A stretch of 64,000 nt of DNA from Litoreibacter arenae DSM 19593. GTDB taxonomy: Bacteria > Pseudomonadota > Alphaproteobacteria > Rhodobacterales > Rhodobacteraceae. Location: assembly GCF_000442275.2 (NCBI RefSeq), contig NZ_KE557312.1:186001-250000 (forward strand). Direction: 5' to 3'. Below the pieces are notes generated by a model, which did no database searches, was not told the origin of the DNA, and saw nothing but the letters and a program-made list of their open reading frames with translations. Positions 7,110 through 19,957 of the stretch are shown here, in pieces; the stretch's first letter is position 1, and each line of letters opens with the position of its first letter. The position numbers were made by a program, and so were the translations under genes.

Positions 7110-7184
7110 GCCCGGGTAGCTCAGGGGTAGAGCAGTGGATTGAAAATCCTCGTGTCGGTGGTTCAAATCCGCCCCTGGGCACCA
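7110..7184 (+). tRNA. tRNA-Phe (GAA)
   Basis: A complete 75-nt cloverleaf with encoded CCA: acceptor GCCCGGG pairs with CCTGGGC, D-arm GCTC...GAGC, anticodon loop TTGAAAA giving anticodon GAA, and T-loop GTTCAAATC. It is the insertion target of the island that follows; its last 15 nt are repeated at 19943-19957, and the gene itself stays intact. Confidence 0.96.
7170..7184 (+). repeat. attL core: 3' end of tRNA-Phe
   Basis: The 15-bp sequence CGCCCCTGGGCACCA at the tRNA 3' end is repeated exactly, in the same orientation, at 19943-19957. Direct repeats of a tRNA terminus flanking an integrase gene are the classic mark of site-specific integration. Confidence 0.88.
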
Positions 7185-7272: not shown

Positions 7273-7421
7273 GTTCGCGGTTCGGTCGCGGTCGAGTTTT
7301 CGTCCAAGAGACGCATTGAGACGTGATCGGGACGGCAGGATATGTGCTGGGACGCCCCCGAGCATTATTGGTAGAGGATGCGAGGCTTATTTTGCTCGCA
7401 TAATCTAGGTTGAGGATGACA

Positions 7422-8012
7422 ATGCCAGCGGATCGCTATTCGACCTTTTCGGAGCTTCTCAGTCACGAGACGGCAGGAAGCGATTATCGCATTGAAGCCC
7501 GTCATGTGACGAATTCAGCCTTGGTTATGGCGCCCCACGGCGGGCGGATCGAACCCGGTACTTCCGAGATTGCGCGAAGTGTGGCCCTAAATGACAAGTC
7601 GCTCTATCTCTTTGAAGGAGTGAGGGCCGGATTAAGGCATCACGAGTTGCACGTGACTTCCCACCTCTACGATGAACCCCTCGCCCTCGAAATTGCAGCT
7701 CGAACCGATCGCTTGGTTGCATTTCATGGCCGCGCTGATCGAGACGACGCCGAGACAATATGGATCGGAGGCCTCGACACAGACCTAAGTGAGCTGATCT
7801 TGGATCATATCGTGCAAGCGGATTTCGTCGGTAGGCTGCAAAAGGGTGAGCTCGCCGGAACTCATCCGAACAACATTTGCAATCGTGCGCGAAGTGGCAG
7901 GGGTGTGCAGCTGGAGCTGCCGAGAGCCTTGAGAAACCGATTGTTGAAAGAGCAAGACTGCTTGGTTCAATTCGCGACTGCTGTGCGCAATGCTCTCGCA
8001 GCGGCGAACTAG
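7422..8012 (+). CDS. poly-gamma-glutamate hydrolase family protein (phage-type)
   Basis: A 196-residue protein with the order of motifs I know from the PghP/DUF867 family of zinc-dependent poly-gamma-glutamate hydrolases: ALVMAPHGGRIEPGTSEIAR, SLYLFEG, LHVTSHLYDEPLAL, LVAFHGRAD, and near the C-terminus NICNRARSGRGVQLELPRALR. The His in PHGG, Glu in IEPGTSE and His in AFHG are likely metal or catalytic residues. The family is common in phages and islands and may remove poly-glutamate capsules. ATG 7422 is preferred because GAGG at 7412-7415 is well spaced; ATG 7416 and TTG 7410 are in frame upstream. Confidence 0.8.
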   Translation: MPADRYSTFSELLSHETAGSDYRIEARHVTNSALVMAPHGGRIEPGTSEIARSVALNDKSLYLFEGVRAGLRHHELHVTSHLYDEPLALEIAARTDRLVAFHGRADRDDAETIWIGGLDTDLSELILDHIVQADFVGRLQKGELAGTHPNNICNRARSGRGVQLELPRALRNRLLKEQDCLVQFATAVRNALAAAN

Positions 8013-8043: not shown

Positions 8044-8409
8044 CTACGAAAGACTGGCGCGTTGCGCTCTCCCGCCCCTAGCTCGTCGCGGTTCTTCTGT
8101 CTCTCCCAACCCTTCCAGCGCCACTGGAGCCGTCCCGGGGAACTCGACCATGAGCTTTAGCTCTCCGCCCATCGCGCGGACGTAGCTCGTCAGCGTCGAA
8201 AGCAGGAGGTCGCTCTGGCGTTCGTACTTCGCGACGGTGGCTTGTTGGACTCCGAGGGTTTCGGCCAGTTGCACTTGGGTCAAGTGCTTGGCCTTCCGCA
8301 GCTCCTGCAGCGTCAGGTACTCGGCATGCAGCCTATCCGCCTCGGCCTCGATCGTTGCGCGGCGGGCGGGGTCGAGGGTCGCCAGCTTGTCCTTCAGGCT
8401 TCGGGCCAT
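8044..8409 (-). CDS. XRE-family antitoxin-like DNA-binding protein (HigA-like)
   Basis: The 121-residue product starts MARSLKDKLATLDPARR and contains a Cro/C1 helix-turn-helix, LTQVQLAETLGVQQATVAKYE, followed by a short C-terminal dimerisation segment. This layout (N-terminal helix, then HTH) is typical of HigA antitoxins encoded after a HigB/RelE-like toxin. Just upstream on the same strand lies the remnant of such a toxin (8415-8581). The antitoxin appears intact while its toxin is not, so it may act as an orphan repressor. The C-terminal 20 or so residues are low-complexity Arg/Glu-rich. Confidence 0.8.
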   Translation of the reverse strand: MARSLKDKLATLDPARRATIEAEADRLHAEYLTLQELRKAKHLTQVQLAETLGVQQATVAKYERQSDLLLSTLTSYVRAMGGELKLMVEFPGTAPVALEGLGETEEPRRARGGRAQRASLS

Positions 8410-8414
8410 CGTCG

Positions 8415-8581
8415 TTATCCTTTCCGTCTCTCCAGATGGCGGTCGAAGCGGTCGTCCGCCCGAGCATGGGGCCTTCCCGCTCGAGCAACAGCGCCCGGGC
8501 GAGGATCGCGTCCTGCACCTCTTGTGGCAGGGCATCGAATTCCGGCTCAAATTCCTCGACAAAGGATACGGTCCACGGCAT
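8415..8581 (-). pseudogene. higB-like toxin remnant with internal deletion
   Basis: Reading from ATG 8581 gives MPWTVSFVEEFEPEFDAL and a helix ending EREGPMLGR, the normal start of a HigB/RelE toxin. The frame then goes out of register. In the frame one base over, the next residues are ADDRFDRHLERRKG and a stop at 8415-8417, the normal end of HigB. The central barrel of about 60 codons, with the catalytic residues, is missing. So an internal deletion joined the two ends of the gene out of frame; the antitoxin start follows 5 bp later. Confidence 0.75.
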
Positions 8582-8723: not shown

Positions 8724-8846
8724 TCAAGCGAGGCCGGTTATCCGCGCCCCTGGGGCATCCGTCGCTCGCTGGAACTCGGCGAACGCCTCGGGCGGGAGCG
8801 TCGAGGTTTCGCCTTCGTCCAGCTTCAGTTTTTCGGTCTTTGTCAT
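8724..8846 (-). CDS. 40-residue peptide coupled to the integrase stop
   Basis: ATG 8846 overlaps the integrase stop (ATGA), so it would be translated by coupling. It reads MTKTEKLKLDEGETSTLPP and ends ARITGLA before a TGA. The same frame continues after that TGA with AAEKALRLLKDAD and a second stop, which looks like the rest of one protein of about 54 residues interrupted by a nonsense codon. No family recognised; coding status is inferred from overlap and composition. Confidence 0.45.
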   Translation of the reverse strand: MTKTEKLKLDEGETSTLPPEAFAEFQRATDAPGARITGLA

Positions 8847-10015
8847 GACTGCCTCCATTGTGTTCTTCTTGGTCGTTTCAGACTTGGCGAGGAATGCGGT
8901 GTATCACGTTTCGCCACCCCGCGCTTCCCCCTTCCCGGCCCGCCCCCATCCCGCGACAAGAGCTTCATCCCGGTCGCCGCCAAGACTTTCTGGCGCGCGG
9001 CGTTGGTGTAGCGCGAGGCCTCCTTCATGGTCGTCCAGCCGAAGATCGCCATCAACTGCCGCTCGGTCGCCCCGTTCTCGGCCGCCAGCGCCGCGCCGGC
9101 CTTGCGAAGCCCGGGGGCGGAGCAGTGCTTCAACCCGGCCTCATCGCATTGCTTGCGGAACCAATTGCCGAATCCGTTCGAGGTGAAGGGCTTGCCGAAG
9201 GCCGTGACGAGGAAGGCCAAGTTGCCGGTGGGCGTCGCGTCGAGTACCGCCTTCAACTCCGCCAGGACCGGGATGGAGAGGGTGACGGGTTTGCGGTCCC
9301 GGTTCTTGGCCTGGGTCAGGGTGATCCAGCCGTCCTTGATGTGCTGCGGCCCGAGCCGGACGATGTCCGAGCGCCGCTGCCCGGTGTAGAGCATGAGTGC
9401 CAATGCGAGGCGCGGCTTGCTGCCGATCGGATGATGCCCCTCGAACTGCCGGACCTCCTCCATCGTCCAGGAATGGAAGCCGTCCCCCTTGGCCTTGAGG
9501 TAGGGCACGTCACGGGCCGGGTTTCGCTGCGCTAGCTCGTATTCGACCGCGAAGGCATAGACCTGCCTGAGCGCCTTGACGAAGCCGTTGGCCGCCTCGG
9601 GCCGGTCGGCCATCTTGTCGCGCATGCGCCGGACATGGCGGGGCTCCATCAGCGCGTAGGGCTTCGATCCGTTCTTCTTGCAGATCCGGTCGAGGATGCC
9701 GCGCCGGACGTACTTTGTGCGGCCACTGAGGCGCTGGTATTCGGCCGAGACGTAGTACTGTTCGCAGAGCCACTTGAAACTGCCCTTCGATCCGCGCCGT
9801 TCCAGAGGTCCGGTCGGCGCGCGCGGCGTCGCGCCCATCATCGCGGCGCGGTATTCGGCGAGGAAGTCCTCCGTCCCCGGCTGGCTCCGTAGCCGCACCT
9901 TCAGGTGGCCGGGCCGCCGCAGGTAGACGCGCACGTTCCCGTGCCGGTCGGTGTCCTCGATGACGTGTTTCAAGCGAATGCTGCCCGAACCGTCTCTCAT
10001 CCTGAATGTGGGCAT
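8843..10015 (-). CDS. int: tyrosine recombinase (island integrase)
   Basis: A 390-residue phage-type integrase with an N-terminal arm-binding region, a SAM-like core-binding domain and a C-terminal catalytic domain. The catalytic series is visible: Arg214 in LYTGQRRSDIVRLG, Arg304 in APGLRKAGA, Trp327 in FGWTTM and the nucleophile Tyr336 in ASRYTNAA. The histidine that normally begins the HxxR box is Pro301 here (codon CCC instead of CAC), an unusual change that may weaken catalysis. It lies near the tRNA-Phe attachment site and is preceded by an AlpA-like gene 25 bp upstream, as expected for an int/xis pair. Confidence 0.93.
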   Translation of the reverse strand: MPTFRMRDGSGSIRLKHVIEDTDRHGNVRVYLRRPGHLKVRLRSQPGTEDFLAEYRAAMMGATPRAPTGPLERRGSKGSFKWLCEQYYVSAEYQRLSGRTKYVRRGILDRICKKNGSKPYALMEPRHVRRMRDKMADRPEAANGFVKALRQVYAFAVEYELAQRNPARDVPYLKAKGDGFHSWTMEEVRQFEGHHPIGSKPRLALALMLYTGQRRSDIVRLGPQHIKDGWITLTQAKNRDRKPVTLSIPVLAELKAVLDATPTGNLAFLVTAFGKPFTSNGFGNWFRKQCDEAGLKHCSAPGLRKAGAALAAENGATERQLMAIFGWTTMKEASRYTNAARQKVLAATGMKLLSRDGGGPGRGKRGVAKRDTPHSSPSLKRPRRTQWRQS

Positions 10016-10754: not shown

Positions 10755-11588
10755 ATGTCGGGGGAGCCATGGACTGACGAAGAAAACGACCTTATCGTCG
10801 CGGACTACTTCGCGATGCTCGCGGAAGACGTCGACGGACAGCCTTACAACAAAGCTGCACATAACAGGCGTCTGCAAGAGATCATCCCTCGCGGGCGTAG
10901 TTCCATCGAGTTCAAGCATCAGAATATCAGCGCCGTTTTGAAGGGACTGGGCGAAGCATGGATCCCCGGCTACAAACCCGCCTTCAATTTCCAGATGTCA
11001 TTGGTAGACGCTGTCGCGCGCTGGCTTGCCTTCAATCCTGGTTGGACCATGCGGATCCCGGGGGGAGGAGCGGCACGCGAGATGCAAGAAGCGGGAAGAC
11101 TCTGGGTCGGGCCACCACCGACGCTTTCGAACCAGCCGCCTCCGGACGAGTTGGAACAGATGCTGGCAGTCGCACGAAAGTTCGATGTTGCGGGCCGTGA
11201 TGAACGGAACCGCGCCTTGGGGAAGGCGGGCGAGGAACGCACCATCGAGCACGAACGAGCCACGCTGCGCGATGCCGGTCGTGATGATCTGGCTCGCAAG
11301 GTCCGCTGGGTTTCCGAAGAGGATGGTGACGGGGCAGGCTACGACATCGAAAGCTTCACACCGGAAGGTCGTGCCCGACTGATCGAGGTCAAGGCAACGA
11401 ATGGATGGGAGCGAACCCCATTCCACATCACGAGGAATGAACTGGCCGTGGCGGATGCCAGGCGCTCGGAATGGTGCTTGCTTCGGCTGTGGGATTTTTC
11501 CCGTCAACCGCGTGCCTTCGAACTGCGTCCTCCGCTGGACGCTCATGTGTCACTGACCGCGACATCGTTTCAGGCAAGCTTTCACTGA
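10755..11588 (+). CDS. DUF3883 / NOV_C domain protein
   Basis: The 277-residue protein has two parts. Residues 1-80 (EPWTDEENDLIVADYFAML, SSIEFKHQNISAVLKGLGE) form a helical domain often attached to DUF3883. Residues about 165-265 (KVRWVSEEDGDGAGYDI, ARLIEVKATNGW, FHITRNELAVA, EWCLLRLWDFSR) form the NO VEIN C-terminal (NOV_C) domain. Its DGAGYDIESF...LIEVKA pattern resembles a restriction-endonuclease-like core (D...ExK). Such proteins are frequent in defence islands. Nuclease activity is inferred, not shown. It precedes the predicted restriction operon but faces the Vsr gene. Confidence 0.85.
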   Translation: MSGEPWTDEENDLIVADYFAMLAEDVDGQPYNKAAHNRRLQEIIPRGRSSIEFKHQNISAVLKGLGEAWIPGYKPAFNFQMSLVDAVARWLAFNPGWTMRIPGGGAAREMQEAGRLWVGPPPTLSNQPPPDELEQMLAVARKFDVAGRDERNRALGKAGEERTIEHERATLRDAGRDDLARKVRWVSEEDGDGAGYDIESFTPEGRARLIEVKATNGWERTPFHITRNELAVADARRSEWCLLRLWDFSRQPRAFELRPPLDAHVSLTATSFQASFH

Positions 11589-11865: not shown

Positions 11866-12282
11866 CTAGGGCCTATCCCGGTCAATGGGTTCCAGTATGC
11901 CCTCAGGGTCAGTCAAAAATGCCGCGACGCTATCCAGCAAGGGGCCGAGGGGTTGTCGTAAGATCTCGCATTCCCAAACGACGCCGACGCGCCAACCCAA
12001 GGCCTCCAATTCTGCGATCTTGCGAGCGTCGCGCTCGATGTTCCGCTCGAACTTCTCGGTCCAGAAGGCCTCGTTGGTTGCTGGTGTCGTTGCCCGTCGG
12101 CACCCGTCGTGTCGATGCCAAAAACAGCCATGAACGAACAAGACCGCCCCGCGGCGCGGGAATACGAGATCCGGCGTTCCCGGAAGTCCGCGTCGGTTCA
12201 CAAGGTACCGAAAGCCCCGTGCGTGGAACGCCTTGCGAAGCGTCACTTCCGCCTTCGAGTCCTTGCTACGGACCCGTGACAT
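11866..12282 (-). CDS. vsr: very short patch repair (Vsr) endonuclease
   Basis: Vsr nicks DNA 5' of the T in T:G mismatches created by deamination of 5-methylcytosine, and usually accompanies a cytosine-5 methylase. The 138-residue product shows LPGTPDLVFP (catalytic Asp38), FVHGCFWHRHDGC (zinc/active-site His and Cys), NIERDARKIAELEALGW and VVWECE. The methylase partner is probably the gene at 16118. From ATG 12282 the protein lacks the first segment of typical Vsr. That segment (NDTVCSEVRSKT) is encoded in frame just upstream but has no start codon and is preceded directly by TAG. Confidence 0.93.
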   Translation of the reverse strand: MSRVRSKDSKAEVTLRKAFHARGFRYLVNRRGLPGTPDLVFPRRGAVLFVHGCFWHRHDGCRRATTPATNEAFWTEKFERNIERDARKIAELEALGWRVGVVWECEILRQPLGPLLDSVAAFLTDPEGILEPIDRDRP

Positions 12283-12321: not shown

Positions 12322-12558
12322 CTAGTCGAAGTCGAAAGTCTCCCTCAGGGCGCGATAGAGCGTTCGCGCGGCATTTCGATCGAATTGCATGACTTGGCTT
12401 GCATGTCCTTCGACCATCCTAGTTTCAGAACCGTAGGTGCGAAGGTCAAGATATGGCTCTTCGCCCGAATGCACGACAGTGTAGGTGCAACGGGATGTGG
12501 TTCGGCTGACGGGATAGTCTTTTGAGTCGTCTTTTTTGATTTCTTTGACCACGGCCAT
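12322..12558 (-). CDS. unknown 78-residue protein upstream of vsr
   Basis: A short hydrophilic protein (YPVSRTTSRCTYTVVHSGE, PYLDLRTYGSET, SQVMQFDRNAARTLYRALRE) ending FDFD, in the same frame as vsr and separated from it only by its own TAG stop. ATG 12558 has AAGGAGG about 11 bp upstream; a GTG at 12585 is an alternative. I recall comparable short proteins of unknown function in many bacteria (L-D-TYGS...R...SQ.LQFD pattern) but cannot name a family. It has no membrane segment. It and vsr are transcribed away from the restriction-like operon. Confidence 0.7.
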   Translation of the reverse strand: MAVVKEIKKDDSKDYPVSRTTSRCTYTVVHSGEEPYLDLRTYGSETRMVEGHASQVMQFDRNAARTLYRALRETFDFD

Positions 12559-12678
12559 TTCCGCTCGATCCTCCTTGGCTGACACTATGGTTTAGCCTAA
12601 CCATTTGCAGCGGATTCACAAAGCGAAGACGGCGGCGCTGGCGGAGAAGTCTTCAAGTCGATTTTCAACGGCAGTGGA

Positions 12679-14376
12679 TTGGACGCCGCCGAACGCCTGG
12701 CGCGCGAGGCGCTGCAAAACAGCGTCGATGCGGCGCGAGAAGGTGAAACACCGCAAGTTGCGTTGCGGATGCACGCTTATTCGGGTGCCGATCTGGATCG
12801 TTTCTGGCATGGCGCTGGCTTGGATGCGTTTACCGCAAGGGTCGGAGTTCTCGGCTTGCACTCAGGCAACGCTTTCGAGGCGAAACCGGAGACGCTTCGT
12901 GTTCTGCATGTCGTTGATTCCGGCACAACCGGGTTGGCAGGGGATCCGACGTCTCCGAGTTCGAAGATGCGCAAGCTGCTTATGGAAATCGGGGGCAGTC
13001 AAAAGGTTGTCGAAGATAAGAATTCCGGTGGTTCTTATGGTTTCGGCAAAGCGGTTTACAGCGCATCATCCCGAGTTGCTGTGATCTTTGCTTACTCTCG
13101 GACACATGATGCAAGTGGGCAACCACTCTCGGTTCTGATGGGGTGTGCCTATCATCGAGAGCACGAATTCGATGGACAGACCACGAGCGGCCGCGCGTTC
13201 TTCGGGAAGCGGATCGAGGAACATGGCATTCCTATCCGACACGATCCCTTCGTTGGAGATGAAGCCGACGAGTTGGCGGCGGAACTCAACATGTCGCGTG
13301 AAGAAGGAGACATCGGCACGACGATCGCCATCGTGGATTGTCCGCTCAAGATGGAGGACATCAAACGAGGCGTCGAACGCTCGTGGTGGCCGAAGATCCG
13401 TCGCGAAAATTTCCGCGTAAACATCACCGATGAAGACGGACAGCGGCTGCACTTGCGACCTCTTCAAGATCCTGAGTTGAGGCCATTCATCGATGCACTC
13501 GATGTCGCTCTAGGCCGTTCGCCGGAACAAAGTGGAAAGTCACGGCGGAAGGCTGACTTCAACAAATTGGATGGAAAGAAAATCGGTCAACTCGGGCTGT
13601 TCGCATTGGTGGATGAGCAAGAGCCGGATGAAATGTCCGACCAGATCGACCGGCGAGACACAATCGCTTTGGTGCGTTCGCCCGGTATGGTCGTTCAATA
13701 CTACCGGCGTGGTTTCCCAAGTCATCCGCCTGTTGTCGGTGTGTTTCTGGCAGACGACGATATCGACGACATTCTACGTCGATCAGAGCCACCGGAACAT
13801 GACCAGTGGGATGCGAATGCCGACAGATTGGATCCTTCGAGTAAGGAAAGCGAAATCGTCCAGTCAGTCCATGCGCGCATTTGGCGAGAGTTGCGAACTT
13901 TCCAAAAATTTGCGCGCCCGCCGGAGAAATCCGATGGCAATCGTTTTCTCCAACTGGAGCGTGAGCTTGCGAAGCTGTTTGGCCCAACCGGCAAACGGGA
14001 GCCGATCGGCGGGGGAAAGGGTGAGACCCCGGTTTCGCTGAGGCCCGATGTCCTGATCGAACAAGCTGCGGATGGCCTGAAGGTGAAAGGCCAAGTGACG
14101 ATCCAACTCAAGGAAGACCACGAGGGTGATTTGCCGGTGATCGTGACGATGCGGCTGAGTTCGATCGACGAAGGCCACCGTCACCTTGATCCGATTGCGT
14201 TGACGGCGTCGTTCAATGGTGCCGACGTCGAAAAGGTCGATGAAGCGGAGTGGCATCTGAGGTTATCGCCTGGCGAGAAGGTCGATGTGGAGGTGGAAAG
14301 CGCGGTTTACGAACCGGATTGGACCGTGGATTTCGTGCCTCGGGTCAAGCCGCTCGGTGTGGAGGGCAAGGCATGA
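12679..14376 (+). CDS. GHKL-fold ATPase (MutL/MORC/Hsp90-like), first gene of predicted defence operon
   Basis: The product, 565 residues from TTG 12679, has a GHKL ATP-binding domain. The N-box is Glu10-Asn14 in REALQNSVDA, the G1 box is VVDSGTTG (Asp80), and the G2 box GGSYGFGKAVYSASS spans residues about 117-131. The remaining 400 residues are unrecognised and may transduce ATP binding to partners. The frame is open back to 12601 and reads convincingly upstream (EVFKSIFNGSGLDAAERL), but no ATG, GTG or TTG exists there before TTG 12679, so the true start is uncertain. It overlaps the next gene by 4 bp. The overlapping methylase/nuclease operon suggests a restriction-like role. GHKL ATPases in bacterial restriction-modification operons have been described as relatives of eukaryotic MORC. 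Confidence 0.85.
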   Translation: MDAAERLAREALQNSVDAAREGETPQVALRMHAYSGADLDRFWHGAGLDAFTARVGVLGLHSGNAFEAKPETLRVLHVVDSGTTGLAGDPTSPSSKMRKLLMEIGGSQKVVEDKNSGGSYGFGKAVYSASSRVAVIFAYSRTHDASGQPLSVLMGCAYHREHEFDGQTTSGRAFFGKRIEEHGIPIRHDPFVGDEADELAAELNMSREEGDIGTTIAIVDCPLKMEDIKRGVERSWWPKIRRENFRVNITDEDGQRLHLRPLQDPELRPFIDALDVALGRSPEQSGKSRRKADFNKLDGKKIGQLGLFALVDEQEPDEMSDQIDRRDTIALVRSPGMVVQYYRRGFPSHPPVVGVFLADDDIDDILRRSEPPEHDQWDANADRLDPSSKESEIVQSVHARIWRELRTFQKFARPPEKSDGNRFLQLERELAKLFGPTGKREPIGGGKGETPVSLRPDVLIEQAADGLKVKGQVTIQLKEDHEGDLPVIVTMRLSSIDEGHRHLDPIALTASFNGADVEKVDEAEWHLRLSPGEKVDVEVESAVYEPDWTVDFVPRVKPLGVEGKA

Positions 14377-15287
14377 ACGCGTGGGTCAGATCACAACCAA
14401 AGACGCTCCGCCCCTATTTCGGTGCGCAAGCGGCCGAAGGTTTGCTCGACGAAATGGAGCTGTTCCTGAAGTTCGGGGATGCACCAGTACAGGGAAACCG
14501 ACTGATCGTCGATGATAGCCAAATGGCGGACATGGCTCCGCGCTTGTACCCGAAGCTATCGGAAGAGCGGATCAATGCCGTATTCGGAGAGCGACGGTCC
14601 GCCTTCGATCTGGTCGTCACTCTTAGGACTCCGCAGATGCTGCGCCGTGAGCTTGTGGAAAGGTTTTCGCTTGGGGAAGAGGCACCGGAATGTATTGAGG
14701 TTCCTCAACACATGCTCAAGGATGCAAAGTTAACGGGCCTTTTCGAACTTGGCGTTTCAATCTGTCTTTCGAAGGACGTCGATCTCGGCCCGGGATGGCC
14801 AAACCATTTGGGAAGCTGGGTGGCAAAGGAGGTCTACACGATCGGCCTGGATCGTAGGCAGTCGGCCTTCCGCATCCTCCCCCTCACTGAGGAGTTGGCC
14901 AAGAGCTTGCATTTGCCGAAAGGCACTTTTGTGTATGTCGATGATATTGAAGACCTGAACACCGTCTATGATGAGGGAACTTCGTGCGCGACGGCGTATG
15001 TTTCGGAAAAAGTTCTGTTGAGTTCCGCGGCTGGGAAGTCGGCGGCCGCCGTCGCCGCACTGATATGGTCAGATATCGCATCTGCAATTCTGTTGGCGGA
15101 CGGAAACGGTGTCAGCGATGCCGAAGAGGTTACTGGAGGGAGCCCACTAGAGGCGATCCTGGAAAACCTGCGGGCGGATCAGTCTTTGTCGCTTTCTGAA
15201 CTGAAGAAACTCATCAAAGACCCGGTACGATTGCGCGCTGCAGTCCATGACAGCCGTGGTCTAGTCAAAGACTTGGAGAAAGTCTGA
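14373..15287 (+). CDS. unrecognised 304-residue protein of the predicted defence operon
   Basis: ATG 14373 overlaps the ATPase stop (ATGA). The protein starts MNAWVRSQPKTLRPYFGAQ and has no transmembrane segment or signal peptide. I see no nuclease, helicase or helix-turn-helix signature. Features include an acidic N-terminal half, SYLGPGWPNHLGSW-like Gly/Trp-rich turn around residue 145 (LGPGWPNHLGSWVAKEVY), a Ser/Ala-rich helix (SAAGKSAAAVAALIWSDIASA) and a C-terminal helical tail. Its obligate-looking coupling to the ATPase suggests that the two proteins form a complex. Function unknown. Confidence 0.8.
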   Translation: MNAWVRSQPKTLRPYFGAQAAEGLLDEMELFLKFGDAPVQGNRLIVDDSQMADMAPRLYPKLSEERINAVFGERRSAFDLVVTLRTPQMLRRELVERFSLGEEAPECIEVPQHMLKDAKLTGLFELGVSICLSKDVDLGPGWPNHLGSWVAKEVYTIGLDRRQSAFRILPLTEELAKSLHLPKGTFVYVDDIEDLNTVYDEGTSCATAYVSEKVLLSSAAGKSAAAVAALIWSDIASAILLADGNGVSDAEEVTGGSPLEAILENLRADQSLSLSELKKLIKDPVRLRAAVHDSRGLVKDLEKV

Positions 15288-16090
15288 TGCCCTATCCGAT
15301 CGTATCCGAGGAATCAGCCAAGGGCTGGTTCAAGAAGTGGCAAGATGCTTGTGAGGAAGCGTCGGCCAGAATATCGCCCATTGAACCTCCCAAGGTCGAA
15401 AAGCAACCAATAGGAGATGACTTCGATTGGGAAATGGAGATTCCAGCGGTCGTCGACAGTCTAGCGGCCCTTTTGGAGAACGAGGGTGAAAAAGCCTTCG
15501 AGTCGAAAGGTGCCGTTTTGCTGCACAAAGCCCTCCCGGATCATGAGGCATTGCGTGATCCGGAGTTCTGGTATTGGTTCGCGATTGTACCAGGTCGGTC
15601 GCTGGTCGAAAGTCGATACCCATTCAAGGAAAAGACCCAAGTTGATCTTGAATTGGAGGACAATGAACGGAAAACACCGAATTATCTTCCGGGCCGCAAC
15701 AACTTCGTTGGTCAGCACGCGAAAGAAGTGCTCTTCTTCCGGCTTTGGATCAGAGCCGAAATGGGAAGGTTGGTTGATGGGGCTGATGATGCTTCGAAGG
15801 TTTACGAATATGCTAGGGGTGGATCTGTCGAGTTCTGGCGAAGCCATCTTCTGCGGGTGCTTTACGCGCAACACCGCCCGTTTCTTCAAGCTTTCGTCGA
15901 TTTCCAGTTTCCCGGGCCGGATCGGGACAAGCCAAGGCTAACCATTCCCGAGATACGTCAGCTTGCCAAAGACTTGGCCAAGGCTTGTGCCAATGTGTCC
16001 GTTGAGTTACTCGACAGGAACCAGAGCAAAGCGTTCATCGAACGCGTATGGGCAAGAACGTCCAGTGCTCGGGCTTGGGTCAAAGACTGA
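15287..16090 (+). CDS. unrecognised 267-residue protein of the predicted defence operon (possibly DUF6339-like)
   Basis: It starts on the last base of the previous stop (TGATG). The product is soluble and rich in Trp, Glu and Lys. The pattern DPEFWYWFAIV, VESRYP, NFVGQHAKEVLFFRLWIRAEMG reminds me of DUF6339, a family of unknown function near helicases and methylases in defence loci, but I cannot confirm this. The C-terminal third is helical with LSNVSVELL-like turns and several conserved-looking Arg/Lys. No catalytic motif is evident. It lies between the ATPase pair and the methylase. Confidence 0.78.
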   Translation: MPYPIVSEESAKGWFKKWQDACEEASARISPIEPPKVEKQPIGDDFDWEMEIPAVVDSLAALLENEGEKAFESKGAVLLHKALPDHEALRDPEFWYWFAIVPGRSLVESRYPFKEKTQVDLELEDNERKTPNYLPGRNNFVGQHAKEVLFFRLWIRAEMGRLVDGADDASKVYEYARGGSVEFWRSHLLRVLYAQHRPFLQAFVDFQFPGPDRDKPRLTIPEIRQLAKDLAKACANVSVELLDRNQSKAFIERVWARTSSARAWVKD

Positions 16091-16117
16091 CCGGCCTGTC
16101 GTAGCGAAAGTGGTGGT

Positions 16118-17380
16118 ATGAACGTAGAAGTGGCAACGGATCGCCACTCTTCCGAAGCCGATACGGCGCATTCGGAATGGTGGCGGGGTTTCTTACGGGG
16201 AGATCATCTTTGGGATGATCCCACCAAGAAGCAATTGTCGGTTGTCGATTTGTTCTGCGGTTCCGGTGGCTTCGGATTGGGGGCAGCCCTTGCAGCCAGC
16301 TGCTTCGATAGCCGTGCCGTTTTCCACGCAATCGCCGACGCGGACGTTTCCGCGATGGAGGTCTATGGCCGGTCCTTGCCGGTAAGAAAGAAAATCGCCG
16401 ACTCTCTCGCGACGATCGTGGACTACTCGGTCTATGAAATGGGTGATACCGCCGAGTTCGACTATCCCCCGGAAATAATTCAACATGACCTCGCCGTGGA
16501 GGTGGGAAAGACGGACCTGCTTATCGCAGGGCCGCCATGCCAAGGGCATTCAAACTTAAACAATCATACGCGTCGAAATGATCCTAGGAACGACTTGTTG
16601 GTCGCGACGGCGGCGATCGCGGTCGCTCTAGAGGCGAAGGCCATTGTCATTGAGAACGTTCCGGGCGTGGTTCGTTCCCACAGCGACGTCGTCGAACTCG
16701 CGCGTCGTCTGCTGACTTCAGAGGGCTATGCTGTGGCCGATCGTGTCCTTAGGATGGACGATCTGGGCGGATGGCAGACCCGCGCGCGATATTTCATGAT
16801 CGCAGTCAAAGGCGCCGAGCAAGGGCTCTTGCAGGATACTCTGACCCACTTGGCGACTGAAGGTTCTGGAACATGTTTCTCGAAAAGGGAGCCACTTGAT
16901 GTTCTTTGGGCAATCGCTGACCTTGAGAACAGCGGGGGCAATTCGGTTTTCGACACGTCGCCGGTCCAGGGGCCTGAGAACATTCGGCGGATAGACTTCC
17001 TCTTCGACGAGGGTATCTACGATCTCCCAAACAGCGAACGCCCCGACTGCCACAAAGATGGAACGACTTACACGTCGGTCTATGGTCGAATGCACCCTGA
17101 CCGGCCCGCACCGACGATCACGACCGGCATCGGTACACCTGGTCAAGGAAGGTTCATCCACCCGACCCGGCGTCGCCTGATTACGCCGCATGAAGCCGCT
17201 CGTATTCAGTCCTTTCCCGATGGCTACGGCTTCATGGGGGGAGATGGCGAGACGCCTCGAAAAGCATTGGCGAAATGGATCGGTGACGCAGTGCCTCCCT
17301 ACCTCGGCATGTCAGCCGTTTGTGCGGCTCTGTCGGTCTTGACGGGCGCTGCTCCCAAGGTTCCTTGGGAAGCTGGATAG
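16118..17380 (+). CDS. DNA (cytosine-5-)-methyltransferase
   Basis: A 420-residue C5 methylase with the motifs in standard order. Motif I is SVVDLFCGSGGFGLGAA (about residues 41-57), motif IV LLIAGPPCQGHS with catalytic Cys141, motif VI IENVPGV, and motif VIII WQTRARYF. Motifs IX/X are ITPHEAARIQSFPDGY and WIGDAVPPYLG. It transfers a methyl group from S-adenosylmethionine to C5 of cytosine. The target-recognition region between motifs VIII and IX is about 110 residues, so the sequence specificity is that of a mono-specific enzyme but cannot be read. In this operon it probably marks self DNA; the nearby Vsr fits repair of deaminated 5-methylcytosine. Confidence 0.95.
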   Translation: MNVEVATDRHSSEADTAHSEWWRGFLRGDHLWDDPTKKQLSVVDLFCGSGGFGLGAALAASCFDSRAVFHAIADADVSAMEVYGRSLPVRKKIADSLATIVDYSVYEMGDTAEFDYPPEIIQHDLAVEVGKTDLLIAGPPCQGHSNLNNHTRRNDPRNDLLVATAAIAVALEAKAIVIENVPGVVRSHSDVVELARRLLTSEGYAVADRVLRMDDLGGWQTRARYFMIAVKGAEQGLLQDTLTHLATEGSGTCFSKREPLDVLWAIADLENSGGNSVFDTSPVQGPENIRRIDFLFDEGIYDLPNSERPDCHKDGTTYTSVYGRMHPDRPAPTITTGIGTPGQGRFIHPTRRRLITPHEAARIQSFPDGYGFMGGDGETPRKALAKWIGDAVPPYLGMSAVCAALSVLTGAAPKVPWEAG

Positions 17381-17435
17381 CGAAATCCGGCACCCCCCAA
17401 CGCCGTCTCGACGCCATTCAAGAGGGTACACGCCC

Positions 17436-18752
17436 GTGACGAAGGAAATCGACGACCTCCGCGAATACCTGCGCAATTACCTCGGCGGTCATTCGTCCGT
17501 GGATAAGGTAACACCCAAGAGCGGTAACTCCGACGAGGTGCATCTTGCAGTCTATCGGACGCGGAACGGCAAACCGATTGGTGTCGAGTTCGACAAGGAG
17601 ACGCTGCAAATCATCTGGGTTCGCGCTGCAGACACGATTACTGTCGCCTCACCAGATGTGAAGGTGACCAAGAAGAACTGGAATGGGATAGAGTGGAAGA
17701 GCGCGGACGATAAAGGCGCAAATAGTAATCTTGGCGGATACGAAGACTTCGTCGGCCATGACCTTGTGCGCTTTGGCGTCAAGTCGAAGAACGCGGCGCA
17801 TGAGATCCTTGACCAACTGTTCGAAGGTCGCACGACGCGCCGCTATTTCCTGAAGGTGAACGGTGAGTTGCATTGTCCAAAGAGCATTTGCCGCCCCGCT
17901 GCCTCTTCTGACTGGGACGGTGGCGAAGTGCTCATCCCCGACAGCGGTCCCATCTACGCGGTCGAAGGATCTCGCCCGAACGCGCCAGAGATTCAACAAG
18001 GTGACGAACTCTGGATCTGGACGCACGAAGACGACGAGTTTGGTCGCGGTTGGGGTCTGACGGCAAAGGCAACGGCAGGTCCGCAACGAAAACAGGATAA
18101 CTTCATCGCGATCACCTTGCGGGACGTTGAACGACTGCCGCGCCCCTTCGGTCTGCGTGATCTCGGTGATGGCGAGACGGGCAGTCGTCTTCTCAATCAC
18201 ACGAGGGCGCACCGCCATCATCAGGCATATCTGATCGAAGATGATGACTATGCGGACTTTCGGAAGGTCGTTGACGCAAAGTCCCACGAGTTGCCCGAAG
18301 ACATTCGCCAGAGTTACGCCCAAGGTTGGGAACGTGAAGTCCTGACCCATAAAGACGACCTGCTGGCGGGATTACAGGACCGAAAGACCTCGACACAGAA
18401 GGCACGATCGGGTCAGGCGCAGTTCAGGGACGCGCTGATGAAGCGATACATGGGGCGGTGCGTCATAACGAGATGCGCCATCTCAGAAGCGTTGGAGGCG
18501 GCGCATATCATGCCACACACCGGCGATCCGAAATGGGACCATCCCGACAACGGGATGCTGCTTCGTCGCGACCTGCACTCGCTGTTCGATGCGATGCTTT
18601 GGAGCATCGATCCAAAGAACAACAGAATGCGCATGGCGGAGCGTTTGAAGACGACGACCTATGGCAAACTCGACGGGCGCGAGATCGATCATCAGGTCGC
18701 ACCGGCATTGCTCGAAGTTCATTTCAGGCAGTTCAAGAAGGGTAACGTATGA
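17436..18752 (+). CDS. HNH endonuclease with a possible PUA/EVE-like middle domain
   Basis: From GTG 17436 the product is 438 residues. The C-terminal 110 residues are an HNH_2-type nuclease: GRCVITRCAISEALEAAHI, MPHTGDPKWDHPDNGM and LLRRDLHSLFDAML give the His-Asn-His metal site. The middle (GDELWIWTHEDDEFGRGWG, FIAITLRDVERLPRPFG) resembles PUA/EVE-type folds that read modified bases. The N-terminal 130 residues are unrecognised. EVE/PUA-HNH fusions are known among modification-dependent restriction enzymes; here, beside a methylase, the domain could instead sense the methylation state. The domain assignment is inference. Its stop overlaps a 36-codon frame. Confidence 0.87.
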   Translation: MTKEIDDLREYLRNYLGGHSSVDKVTPKSGNSDEVHLAVYRTRNGKPIGVEFDKETLQIIWVRAADTITVASPDVKVTKKNWNGIEWKSADDKGANSNLGGYEDFVGHDLVRFGVKSKNAAHEILDQLFEGRTTRRYFLKVNGELHCPKSICRPAASSDWDGGEVLIPDSGPIYAVEGSRPNAPEIQQGDELWIWTHEDDEFGRGWGLTAKATAGPQRKQDNFIAITLRDVERLPRPFGLRDLGDGETGSRLLNHTRAHRHHQAYLIEDDDYADFRKVVDAKSHELPEDIRQSYAQGWEREVLTHKDDLLAGLQDRKTSTQKARSGQAQFRDALMKRYMGRCVITRCAISEALEAAHIMPHTGDPKWDHPDNGMLLRRDLHSLFDAMLWSIDPKNNRMRMAERLKTTTYGKLDGREIDHQVAPALLEVHFRQFKKGNV

Positions 18753-18859
18753 CGGCGACCAGTTTCACCTTCGCGGATCGGATCGAAACGGAGACCCGCG
18801 CCGGTTCAAGCGCCGCCGACCAACTTCTCGACGCGTTTCAAGTGGAGATGAGCGCGTGA
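18749..18859 (+). CDS. 36-residue peptide overlapping both neighbours
   Basis: ATG 18749 overlaps the HNH stop (ATGA) and its own TGA overlaps the GTG start of the CBS-HEPN gene (GTGA). It reads MTATSFTFADRIETETRAG and ends DAFQVEMSA, a mostly helical acidic peptide. The double overlap argues that it is translated, either as a functional small partner such as an antitoxin or as a coupling leader. No family recognised. Confidence 0.6.
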   Translation: MTATSFTFADRIETETRAGSSAADQLLDAFQVEMSA

Positions 18860-19701
18860 GTGCAGGAGTGGTTGAGTTCTCTGAGCAACGCCACCTGAAC
18901 GATCTGAAAAGCGTTCAGGGTCAGTTGACCCTTTCCAACATCATGACGCCGCGCCACGAGTTCATATGCTGCACTGCCAATGAACCCGCGCAAGGTGTTA
19001 TGGAACGTATTCCGGCAGTCTTTGATGCTGTTCCCGTAATCGACTCCACGGACGCGACAGATACATCTGCCCCGATTATCGGTCTTCTTCATCGCGACCA
19101 CATTCCGTTCAGGAACAAGAGCATTCGTGCCGCTGACTGCGCTGACGCATCTGCGATCACCCAAGCGCATCCTTCGAACCGCAACCTTCTTGTCTATATT
19201 CATGATCTGAGCGGTCATCCGGTCGAGTTCGTTCAAGAAGATGGTCAAATTGTCGGTCTGGTGACGCCATATGACCTTGAACGCCTTCCCGTGAGAACCG
19301 CTCTGTTCGCCCAGATCATCAATGTTGAACGGTTGATAGGCGACCTGATACGCGAACGCTTTCCTGACACCGTTGAATGGGAAAGGTTGATCTCGCCCAA
19401 CCTTCGCAGCGAGTTACAAACAGGTCTGGCGCGCGCCCGTGGCGCAGAGAGTTCCGGTCATGCAATTCTCTCCGTTGGTTTCGGTGTGAAACTCGACCTA
19501 CTTGCCCATTGTTTCGAGGGGGCGCGGAATAAGTCTTGGGCTCTTCAAGAGCGCCACGAAATCAGGATCTTTCGTAACAACGTCGCCCACGGAGCACCGT
19601 TCCCGGATGTGATGCAATTGCCCGGGCAAGTTCGAAACCTGATCCGACTACGCATTCTCATTTCAGGTCGTATTGCTAAACTCAAAGGTCAGGATTCATG
19701 A
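18856..19701 (+). CDS. CBS-pair protein with a C-terminal HEPN-like RNase motif
   Basis: From GTG 18856 the product is 281 residues. The N-terminal half has a CBS pair (LTLSNIMTPRHEFICC, APIIGLLHRDHI, then HPVEFVQEDGQIVGLVTPYD), which normally binds adenosine nucleotides. The C-terminal half is helical and ends with ALQERHEIRIFRNNVAHG, which contains R240-x4-H245, the HEPN signature of defence and toxin RNases. A nucleotide-sensing CBS module joined to an RNase-type HEPN domain fits an abortive-infection effector or regulator at the end of the operon. RNase activity is inferred from the motif alone. Confidence 0.78.
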   Translation: MSAGVVEFSEQRHLNDLKSVQGQLTLSNIMTPRHEFICCTANEPAQGVMERIPAVFDAVPVIDSTDATDTSAPIIGLLHRDHIPFRNKSIRAADCADASAITQAHPSNRNLLVYIHDLSGHPVEFVQEDGQIVGLVTPYDLERLPVRTALFAQIINVERLIGDLIRERFPDTVEWERLISPNLRSELQTGLARARGAESSGHAILSVGFGVKLDLLAHCFEGARNKSWALQERHEIRIFRNNVAHGAPFPDVMQLPGQVRNLIRLRILISGRIAKLKGQDS

Positions 19702-19796
19702 CTGAAACCCACACCACCGCAGACATTCAGCAAGAGAAGGTTTTCTGGGTGTATCCTGGCCGCTGCCTCAAGCTGCTTACTCCTTTCACTATCTGA
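19698..19796 (+). CDS. short, probably degraded frame at the island end
   Basis: ATG 19698 overlaps the CBS-HEPN stop and encodes 32 residues (MTETHTTADIQQEKVFWVY...). Past about 19755 a different frame looks more protein-like (AAYSFHYLKKQASEITCAA), suggesting a frameshifted or truncated gene cut at the island boundary. Nothing else is visible up to the attachment repeat. Confidence 0.3.
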   Translation: MTETHTTADIQQEKVFWVYPGRCLKLLTPFTI

Positions 19797-19942
19797 AGAA
19801 GCAGGCCTCCGAGATCACATGCGCGGCGCCGTTGAACTCTTCGAAAAAGTGGGACACAAATCCGAAAAAATCCAATTAACATGGTGAAAGAAAAAAGTCT
19901 CACCGCCTCGTAACTTATTACAATAAAAACAAGAGGTTATGT

Positions 19943-19957
19943 CGCCCCTGGGCACCA
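19943..19957 (+). repeat. attR core: duplicate of the tRNA-Phe 3' end
   Basis: CGCCCCTGGGCACCA is identical to the last 15 nt of tRNA-Phe (7170-7184) and in the same orientation. The bases on either side differ from those at the tRNA. No tRNA body precedes it, so it marks the distal island junction. Confidence 0.88.

What the first reader, a model, noticed from the sequence alone, without database searches (positions are those of the whole stretch)
12601..19701. Compact GHKL-ATPase / methylase / HNH / CBS-HEPN operon, a candidate undescribed restriction-type defence system
Seven reading frames run in one direction, with overlaps at five of the six junctions or gaps under 60 bp elsewhere. In order they encode a GHKL ATPase, a 304-aa unknown, a 267-aa unknown, a cytosine-5 methylase, an HNH nuclease with a possible modified-base-reading domain, a 36-aa peptide and a CBS-HEPN protein. 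Vsr and DUF3883 genes lie alongside in the island. Domain identities come from visible motifs. GHKL ATPases in bacterial restriction operons (relatives of eukaryotic MORC/MutL) are established. The full combination with a terminal HEPN protein and two unrecognised partners is not one I can match to a named system, so novelty is inference.
Basis: partly seen in the sequence, partly recalled or inferred. Interest (0 to 1): 0.87.

Follow-up and report, generated by a model that had tools for sequence, protein, structure and literature searches.

The report
GHKL-DUF6339 methylation-linked defence operon
A conserved four-gene set (an ATPase, two proteins of unknown fold and a DNA cytosine methylase), usually with a mismatch-repair nuclease, that probably protects bacteria from foreign DNA; it looks like a divergent, untested branch of a defence type already predicted by others, and here it carries extra nuclease-type genes as an insert.

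Summary
The genes are real, but the seven-gene "operon" is two things. The conserved unit is GHKL ATPase – 304-aa (B) – 267-aa (C) – C5 methylase, usually with Vsr. It occurs in this order in 28 of 36 loci found with the GHKL, in Proteobacteria, Acidobacteria and an actinobacterium; more distant versions sit in Deinococcus, a cyanobacterium and an archaeon. The HNH, 36-aa and CBS-HEPN genes are a 2.45-kb insert, absent from three close sister islands. Two of four genomic relatives of the HNH gene lie beside Type I R-M genes.

The "unknown" partners are not unprecedented. The GHKL matches PADLOC candidate PDC-M33A and carries the ExxxH motif given for paraMORC2 (predicted R-M ATPases, 2008). 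The 267-aa protein is a divergent DUF6339/PDC-M33C relative; the 304-aa protein takes the B position. My searches found no experimental paper. So: a new variant of a predicted kind, not a new kind.

Most likely mechanism (inferred): the methylase marks self DNA, an ATP-driven GHKL-B-C complex acts on unmarked DNA, and Vsr repairs deaminated marks. The core shows no nuclease by sequence or fold search. In this window the GHKL gene lacks its usual start and about 14 residues, so this copy may be altered.

The parts
12601..14376 (+). GHKL (Bergerat-type) ATPase, paraMORC2-like / PDC-M33A; open frame from 12601, first ATG/GTG/TTG in frame is TTG 12679; N-terminus differs from that of close relatives
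   Evidence: PDC-M33A E 6e-22; E36, N40, D106, G111, G144, G147, G149, K150, G239 and E396xxxH400 invariant in 26 aligned members
14373..15287 (+). 304-aa protein, component B; predicted beta-rich domain plus helical C-terminus, no known fold found
   Evidence: same position in 28 of 36 loci; R13-P14 invariant near N-terminus; hhalign 88% to the B position of L024/L025
15287..16090 (+). 267-aa protein, component C; divergent DUF6339 / PDC-M33C relative, all-helical model
   Evidence: 19 of 26 aligned members match DUF6339 (E up to 0.1), 10 of 26 match PDC-M33C (E up to 0.01); the window protein itself matches neither
16118..17380 (+). C5 cytosine DNA methyltransferase (catalytic Cys141 in PPCQ); the only PF00145 match of the genome
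   Evidence: target-recognition region conserved across phyla
11866..12282 (-). Vsr mismatch endonuclease, divergent from the operon; the only PF03852 match of the genome
   Evidence: Vsr in 21 of 28 loci with the four-gene order
12322..12585 (-). 87-aa protein (first in-frame start GTG 12585), between Vsr and GHKL; shares its presence with the altered GHKL 5' end
   Evidence: present in L030; no significant match in L029, L031, L032 (L029 is a partial contig)
17385..19838 (+). 2.45-kb segment absent from sister islands L029, L030, L031 (86-89 bp there): carries HNH, 36-aa peptide and CBS-HEPN-like genes
   Evidence: blastn of the island against sister islands
17436..18752 (+). HNH_2 nuclease, 438 aa, with upstream domain of unknown fold; two of four genomic relatives lie beside Type I R-M genes
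18749..18859 (+). 36-aa open frame overlapping both neighbours
   Evidence: a relative was sought only in the six sister loci, none found
18856..19701 (+). CBS-HEPN-like protein, 281 aa (RNNVAH motif); remnant of a homologue after the methylase in L032
7170..7184 (+). left att-like repeat CGCCCCTGGGCACCA at 3' end of tRNA-Phe (7110-7184)
19943..19957 (+). right att-like repeat, same 15 bp; end of island
8843..10015 (-). tyrosine integrase of the island
   Evidence: PF00589 E 6e-15
10755..11588 (+). NO VEIN C-terminal (NOV_C) protein, PADLOC PDC-S36
   Evidence: PDC-S36 421 bits

Best explanation
A mobile tRNA-Phe island carries a restriction-modification-like defence module of the paraMORC2 / PDC-M33 kind, in a divergent branch: GHKL ATPase (A), a beta-rich protein (B), a helical DUF6339-type protein (C), a C5 methyltransferase and Vsr. 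SHOWN: the gene set, its conserved order, purifying selection, conserved ATPase and methylase motifs, and that HNH, 36-aa and CBS-HEPN genes are a separable insert. INFERRED: the methylase marks host DNA at a target that is conserved across the family. The GHKL dimer, closing on ATP, works with B and C as a DNA-bound machine that lets modified DNA pass and restricts unmodified incoming DNA. Vsr repairs T:G mismatches left when 5-methylcytosine deaminates. The cutting or blocking step is unassigned: it may lie in B or C as an unrecognised nuclease, in a recruited host nuclease, or in blockage without cutting. HNH and CBS-HEPN would be accessory back-up effectors.
For: Order A-B-C-MTase in 28 of 36 loci, three of the other eight being cut by contig ends; Vsr in 21 of the 28. 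In 398 Pseudomonadota genomes PDC-M33A occurs in 11: in 11 of 11 loci two genes of 238-307 aa follow directly, and a C5 methylase lies within 9 kb (ten, two of these 6-7 kb away; the window). DUF6339, sought on its own, is in 3 of 398 genomes, 3 of 3 beside PDC-M33A. Divergences of A, B, C and methylase correlate in 18 loci (Spearman 0.43-0.83, 0 of 500 permutations as high for each of six pairs). dN/dS 0.04-0.11 for GHKL among five sister islands. ATPase motifs and ExxxH. Sole C5 methylase and sole Vsr of the genome. PADLOC carries the relatives as PDC models.
Against: No defence assay turned up in what I could search. No nuclease is recognisable in the core. PDC-M33 is itself only a candidate. 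B does not align with PDC-M33B (hhalign 1%). DUF6339's Pfam model finds only 3 of the 11 PDC-M33A loci and not the window. GHKL as such has no Pfam or PDB sequence match, and against E. coli MutL only the N-box aligns. The window's GHKL lacks the usual start and about 14 residues, so this copy could be impaired.
Confidence: 0.6

Rival explanations
1. One reading: all seven genes form one new restriction system, with HNH as its restriction nuclease and CBS-HEPN as its abortive arm.
For: Same strand, 55-nt gap after the methylase, short overlaps. HNH_2 genes occur near other GHKL/C5 R-M loci in Bellieny-Rabelo 2021 (PMC8011034, passages). A CBS-HEPN remnant follows the methylase in L032. HNH-domain genes also lie downstream of the methylase in L042 and L055, on the other strand.
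Against: The 17385-19838 segment is missing from L029, L030 and L031, whose four core proteins are 92-98% identical to the window's and under purifying selection. Two of four genomic HNH relatives sit beside Type I R-M genes, and three plasmid relatives looked at have no annotated methylase within about 5 kb. The window CBS-HEPN was found in 1 of 244 genomes of the order, its own, and in no plasmid record.
Confidence: 0.1
2. Restriction without cutting: the GHKL-B-C complex is a MORC-like DNA clamp that entraps or compacts unmethylated foreign DNA and blocks its expression or replication.
For: No nuclease signature in A, B or C by Pfam, PADLOC, PDB sequence or, for B and C, fold search. Abstract of PMC8277788 (start seen in a listing) says C. 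elegans MORC-1 topologically entraps and condenses DNA. Iyer 2008 proposes looping.
Against: Absence of a recognised fold is weak evidence. Iyer 2008 links MORC and paraMORC operons to nucleases, and VcSduA, a paraMORC3-like protein, needs its nuclease residue (PMC12137116 passages).
Confidence: 0.15
3. A dedicated methylation-repair module: the GHKL acts as a private MutL partner of Vsr, guarding the genome against 5mC deamination, with no defence role.
For: Vsr in 21 of 28 loci; in E. coli, MutL and Vsr interact (title of reference 18 in PMC2292703).
Against: Vsr was not found in 7 of the 28 (two of them short contigs) and is variably placed, whereas B- and C-sized genes adjoin A in 11 of 11 loci. 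E. coli Dcm-Vsr works without such partners (recalled). Sporadic distribution, 11 of 398 genomes, fits defence.
Confidence: 0.08
4. In this window the module is decaying: the GHKL lost its start by replacement of its 5' end, so the operon may no longer work.
For: No ATG/GTG/TTG before 12679; L029, L031 and L032 have 14 more residues with a Trp that recurs in most relatives. The Paracoccus sanguinis copy (L016/L036) is clearly broken: GHKL N-terminal part missing, methylase split.
Against: The same altered 5' end is in L030 with 81% DNA identity around the junction, so it is not recent, and GHKL dN/dS between the two is 0.05. The frame is otherwise open.
Confidence: 0.2

Closest known systems
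PADLOC candidate PDC-M33 (A, B, C)
   Same: GHKL of the same family (26 of 26 aligned members match PDC-M33A; five of the 26 had been found with that model), two genes of like size in the same order, C component in the same superfamily
   Different: window B and C do not match the PADLOC models; B is not alignable with PDC-M33B. The C5 methylase and Vsr carry no PDC-M33 name among the PADLOC matches shown; I did not see PADLOC's gene-set definition
paraMORC2 R-M ATPases (Iyer, Abhiman and Aravind 2008, PMC2292703)
   Same: GHKL with its motifs, ExxxH in the C-terminal part, C5 methylase and Vsr neighbours, sporadic spread
VcSduA / GHKL-Shedu (paraMORC3; PMC12137116)
   Same: GHKL ATPase used in phage defence, experimentally shown there
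   Different: single protein with a PD-(D/E)xK (DUF4263) domain; no such domain found here
Response_reg_2 / HEF_HK loci (PMC8011034)
   Same: GHKL beside C5 methylase, Vsr and HNH_2
   Different: neither Pfam domain is found in the ten window proteins scanned
Druantia II / DISARM methylases (DruM2, DrmMII)
   Same: the methylase's best PADLOC match is DruM2 (E 2e-81; DrmMII 7e-27)
   Different: no other Druantia or DISARM gene among the matches of the ten proteins scanned (for the methylase the best 25 of 59 were shown)

Membership tests
PDC-M33 (PADLOC) | PDC-M33A GHKL protein | tested here: met
   E 6.2e-22 for the window, 26 of 26 aligned members
PDC-M33 (PADLOC) | PDC-M33B next to A | tested here: inconclusive
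   same position and length; no PDC-M33B match; hhalign 1% to M33B-like A8, 88% to the B position of intermediate loci L024/L025, whose L024 member has no PADLOC match either
PDC-M33 (PADLOC) | PDC-M33C next to B | tested here: inconclusive
   window protein itself no match; 10 of 26 aligned members match; hhalign 94% to three M33C-position proteins, of which the two scanned match PDC-M33C
paraMORC2 | GHKL ATP-binding motifs | tested here: met
   motifs visible in the window; in 26 aligned rows E36, N40, D43, D106, G111, G144, G147, G149, K150, G239 are invariant
paraMORC2 | ExxxH in C-terminal part of the S5 domain | tested here: met
   E396 and H400 invariant in 26 of 26; an ExxxH of like context also in Synechococcus, Halomicrobium and Deinococcus relatives. 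That this stretch lies in the S5 domain was not modelled
paraMORC2 | R-M gene neighbourhood with methylase and Vsr | tested here: met
paraMORC2 | SFII helicase or RE-fold nuclease partner | tested here: not met
   none among the window proteins scanned, Vsr apart; relatives' flanks were inspected by eye only. Iyer 2008 says that a minority of MORC neighbourhoods lack helicases, so this is not strictly defining
DUF6339 (PF19866) | match of the 267-aa protein to the Pfam model | tested here: not met
   window protein no match at E 0.1, though 19 of 26 in the same alignment match (best E 1.3e-12): superfamily member, not model member
Type II R-M with its own restriction nuclease | a restriction endonuclease that always accompanies the methylase | tested here: not met
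   HNH absent in L029-L031; no nuclease recognised in A, B, C
HEPN ribonuclease | HEPN domain with RxxxxH | tested here: inconclusive
   RNNVAH present; no Pfam HEPN match; fold not modelled

The most novel reading that the evidence does not exclude
A restriction system with no nuclease: a bacterial MORC-like ATPase with two partners of unmatched fold reads cytosine methylation and silences unmarked DNA by topological entrapment, a prokaryotic counterpart of the MORC and DNA-methylation silencing of eukaryotes, shared by bacteria and archaea.
Probability: 0.14. Interest if true: 0.9.

Novelty: new variant of a known kind. Interest (0 to 1): 0.45.

Why it matters
It joins three loose ends (a GHKL family named in 2008, an anonymous PADLOC candidate and Pfam's DUF6339) into one widespread, mobile, methylase-linked module of bacteria and archaea with an unknown effector step. 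The host genome has a single C5 methylase, so a methylome would give the target at once. If the core restricts without cutting, it would tie eukaryotic MORC silencing to a bacterial defence ancestor.

Tried and rejected
Led nowhere: P304 against plasmids (no match), GHKL against phages (no match), CBS-HEPN against plasmids (no match); P267 and GHKL against viral contigs (no relatives). Fold search in the PDB: P267 best E 1.6, P304 best E 3.2e-3 with TM 0.26, both too weak to interpret; P304 in the viral library nothing at E 0.001. PDB sequence profiles: nothing convincing for A, B or C.

Rejected: methylase target equals E. coli Dcm's. The alignment gives 24% identity overall and no clear likeness in the target-recognition region, so no site is proposed. 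Not supported: that HNH reads a modified base. The profile's only significant PDB match (6yex, named HNH endonuclease) covers the HNH part alone; the upstream region is conserved but unassigned. Not supported: homology of the window CBS-HEPN with the CBS/HEPN-like gene of L072 (best BLASTP E 0.055); they only look alike to me.

Found against my reading: B is not detectably related to PDC-M33B. In L032 the 3' half of B and most of C differ (52-63% DNA identity against 82-97% on either side), so B-C can be exchanged without A and the methylase. Three of the 28 loci (L036, L040, L048) hold a split gene in the set.

Rows dropped: one search used 18 loci with all four genes in the filtered lists (L029-L031 left out as near-identical; others fell to the score, length or strand filters). 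L036, L038 and L057 are the same contigs as L016, L023 and L028 (equal contig lengths). The P304 alignment A6 held 22 of the 24 relatives listed; the P267 alignment A7 held 25 of 26.

Literature limits: the paper search found no paper with 'PDC-M33' or 'DUF6339', 7 with 'paraMORC', 3 with related phrases. Only open PMC papers are held; preprints and most subscription papers are not.


Full report
WHAT IS THERE. The window lies in contig 9 of a 3.68-Mb genome. The genes sit in an island between tRNA-Phe (7110-7184) and a second copy of 15 bp of its 3' end (19943-19957), with a tyrosine integrase. On the + strand are a GHKL frame (12601-14376), 304-aa (14373-15287), 267-aa (15287-16090), C5 methylase (16118-17380), HNH (17436-18752), 36-aa (18749-18859) and CBS-HEPN-like (18856-19701) frames. 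Four of six junctions overlap. Vsr (11866-12282) and an 87-aa gene lie upstream on the minus strand.

THE CONSERVED UNIT IS FOUR GENES PLUS VSR. A scan of GTDB species genomes with a GHKL alignment gave 36 loci. Profile searches of all frames found GHKL-P304-P267-methylase in this order and strand in 28 of 36; three of the other eight (L044, L045, L064) end within 700 bp of the GHKL, and L056, L060, L061, L062, L063 hold partial sets. Vsr lies near in 21 of the 28. Record titles of loci with the full set include Marivita, Rubricella, Rhodovulum, Mesorhizobium, Sphingomonas, Massilia, Roseateles, Arenimonas, Pyrinomonas and an actinobacterium. Three loci repeat contigs already seen, L029-L031 are near-identical islands, and L036, L040, L048 hold a split gene, so independent intact cases are fewer. 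The branch nearest the window is rare: P304 was found in 2 of 292 genomes of the order and a P267 profile in 2 of 385 of the class.

In a separate sample of 398 Pseudomonadota genomes (two of its loci are among the 36) PDC-M33A occurred in 11. In all 11 loci the GHKL is followed directly by two genes of 253-307 and 238-281 aa, and a C5 methylase lies within 9 kb (for ten, of which L018 and L022 have it 6-7 kb away; for the window). DUF6339, sought on its own with the Pfam model, occurred in 3 of 398, each time beside PDC-M33A; it misses the other eight loci, the window included. Annotated plasmids show the set outside Proteobacteria: Synechococcus pIITB6_1 (GHKL, hypothetical, DUF6339, C5 methylase), the archaeon Halomicrobium urmianum (C5 methylase about 5 kb upstream of GHKL, hypothetical, DUF6339) and Deinococcus actinosclerus (methylase, Vsr, GHKL, two hypotheticals). 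My profiles confirm GHKL, C and methylase there, but not B. Divergence of A, B, C and methylase is correlated in 18 loci. dN/dS among the sister islands is 0.04-0.14 for most gene pairs, and 0.23-0.32 for Vsr in the closest islands, B pairs with L032 and two C pairs.

HNH, 36-AA AND CBS-HEPN ARE CARGO. The island aligns with three sister islands up to 17384 and again from 19839-19841; the 2.45 kb between is missing in L029, L030 and L031, which have 86-89 bp there. Their four core proteins are 92-98% identical to the window's. Of four genomic HNH relatives, two lie beside hsdM- and hsdS-like genes (L071, L072; recognised by me from the translations, not by a family search), and L072 also holds a CBS/HEPN-like frame. 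The window CBS-HEPN was found in 1 of 244 genomes of the order, its own, but a remnant of a homologue follows the methylase in L032. So HEPN has met this module at least twice, without being part of it.

WHAT THE UNKNOWN PROTEINS ARE. The GHKL has no Pfam family but 26 of 26 aligned members match PDC-M33A (five of them had been found with that model), and the ATPase motifs are visible. E396 and H400 are invariant: the ExxxH that Iyer and colleagues give for paraMORC2 (PMC2292703, section 3 parts 1-2 of 3 and passages read). The 267-aa protein is a divergent DUF6339: 19 of 26 aligned members match the Pfam model at E up to 0.1 (best 1.3e-12), 10 of 26 match PDC-M33C, and profile comparison gives 94% with M33C-position proteins and 96% with those of intermediate loci; the window protein alone matches neither model. 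It models as all-helical (pLDDT 83). The 304-aa protein takes the B position; it compares at 88% with the B position of intermediate loci but not with PDC-M33B. It models as a beta-rich domain plus a helical tail (pLDDT 85, pTM 0.53). Neither has a match at E 0.001 in the PDB.

THE METHYLASE keeps its motifs. Its target-recognition region (about 233-318, bounds set by me) is 49% identical to the window on average, near the 55% of the catalytic core, which suggests one shared target. It is unlike E. coli Dcm there. It is the only C5 methylase, and the Vsr the only Vsr, found in the genome.

STATE OF THIS COPY. In L029, L031 and L032 the GHKL is predicted to start with GTG and has about 14 further residues that hold a recurrent Trp. 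In the window and L030 that end is replaced, together with presence of the 87-aa gene, and no usual start codon precedes TTG 12679. The junction region has 81% DNA identity between window and L030, so it is not recent, and the rest of the gene shows dN/dS 0.05. That argues for a working gene with an unusual or shorter start, but exchange between islands could mislead: gene divergences in the island are a mosaic, and L032 swapped half of B and most of C.

MECHANISM. Established for the families (recalled): C5 methylases mark DNA, Vsr repairs T:G mismatches, GHKL dimers close on ATP. Inferred: A-B-C is the restriction arm against unmarked DNA. Unknown: the effector step. A GHKL protein of the related paraMORC3 type defends against phage and needs both ATPase and nuclease residues (PMC12137116 passages); no nuclease is seen here, so either B or C hides one, a host nuclease is used, or DNA is blocked without cutting.

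LITERATURE. PDC genes are described as 'phage defence candidate' genes (PMC11514479 passages). HEPN fused to CBS is known (PMC3710099 passages). GHKL, C5 methylase, Vsr and HNH_2 neighbourhoods are described for another GHKL family (PMC8011034, abstract and passages). No experimental study of this module turned up.

VERDICT. A divergent branch of a predicted but, as far as I could find, untested defence kind, with a cargo insert. Interest 0.45.

Noticed in passing
L032:11746-13451: 3' half of the B gene and most of the C gene are 52-63% identical in DNA to the window while GHKL, the 5' half of B, the end of C and the methylase are 82-97%: B-C looks exchanged by recombination.
   Followed up: partly
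window 7410-8012: Gene for a poly-gamma-glutamate hydrolase-like protein (PF05908, E 4e-53) inside the island next to tRNA-Phe.
   Followed up: no
window 8044-8581: HTH_3 protein (antitoxin-like) overlapping a short frame on the minus strand, looks like a toxin-antitoxin pair in the island.
   Followed up: no
L059:9187-9462, L048:9540-9869, L022:10274-10744: Small protein of about 90 aa with an IRxIGxLSNR-like stretch just upstream of Vsr or GHKL in three relatives; it may be a further component.
   Followed up: partly
L016 / L036 (Paracoccus sanguinis): Decayed copy of the module: GHKL lacks its N-terminal part and the methylase is split in two frames.
   Followed up: partly
L072:1819-10471: Type I R-M-like locus with an HNH gene between hsdS-like and hsdR-like genes, and a CBS/HEPN-like frame nearby: the same cargo types in another R-M setting.
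   Followed up: partly
L017:530-3381: Canonical PDC-M33 locus followed by an ATPase-like gene and a CARF6-type gene (PADLOC matches).
   Followed up: no
L082:7045-16822 (Rubrobacter marinus plasmid): A Vsr and C5 methylase pair like this one (methylase 46% over 67% of the query), with a DEAD/DEAH helicase in the stretch and no annotated DUF6339.
   Followed up: no
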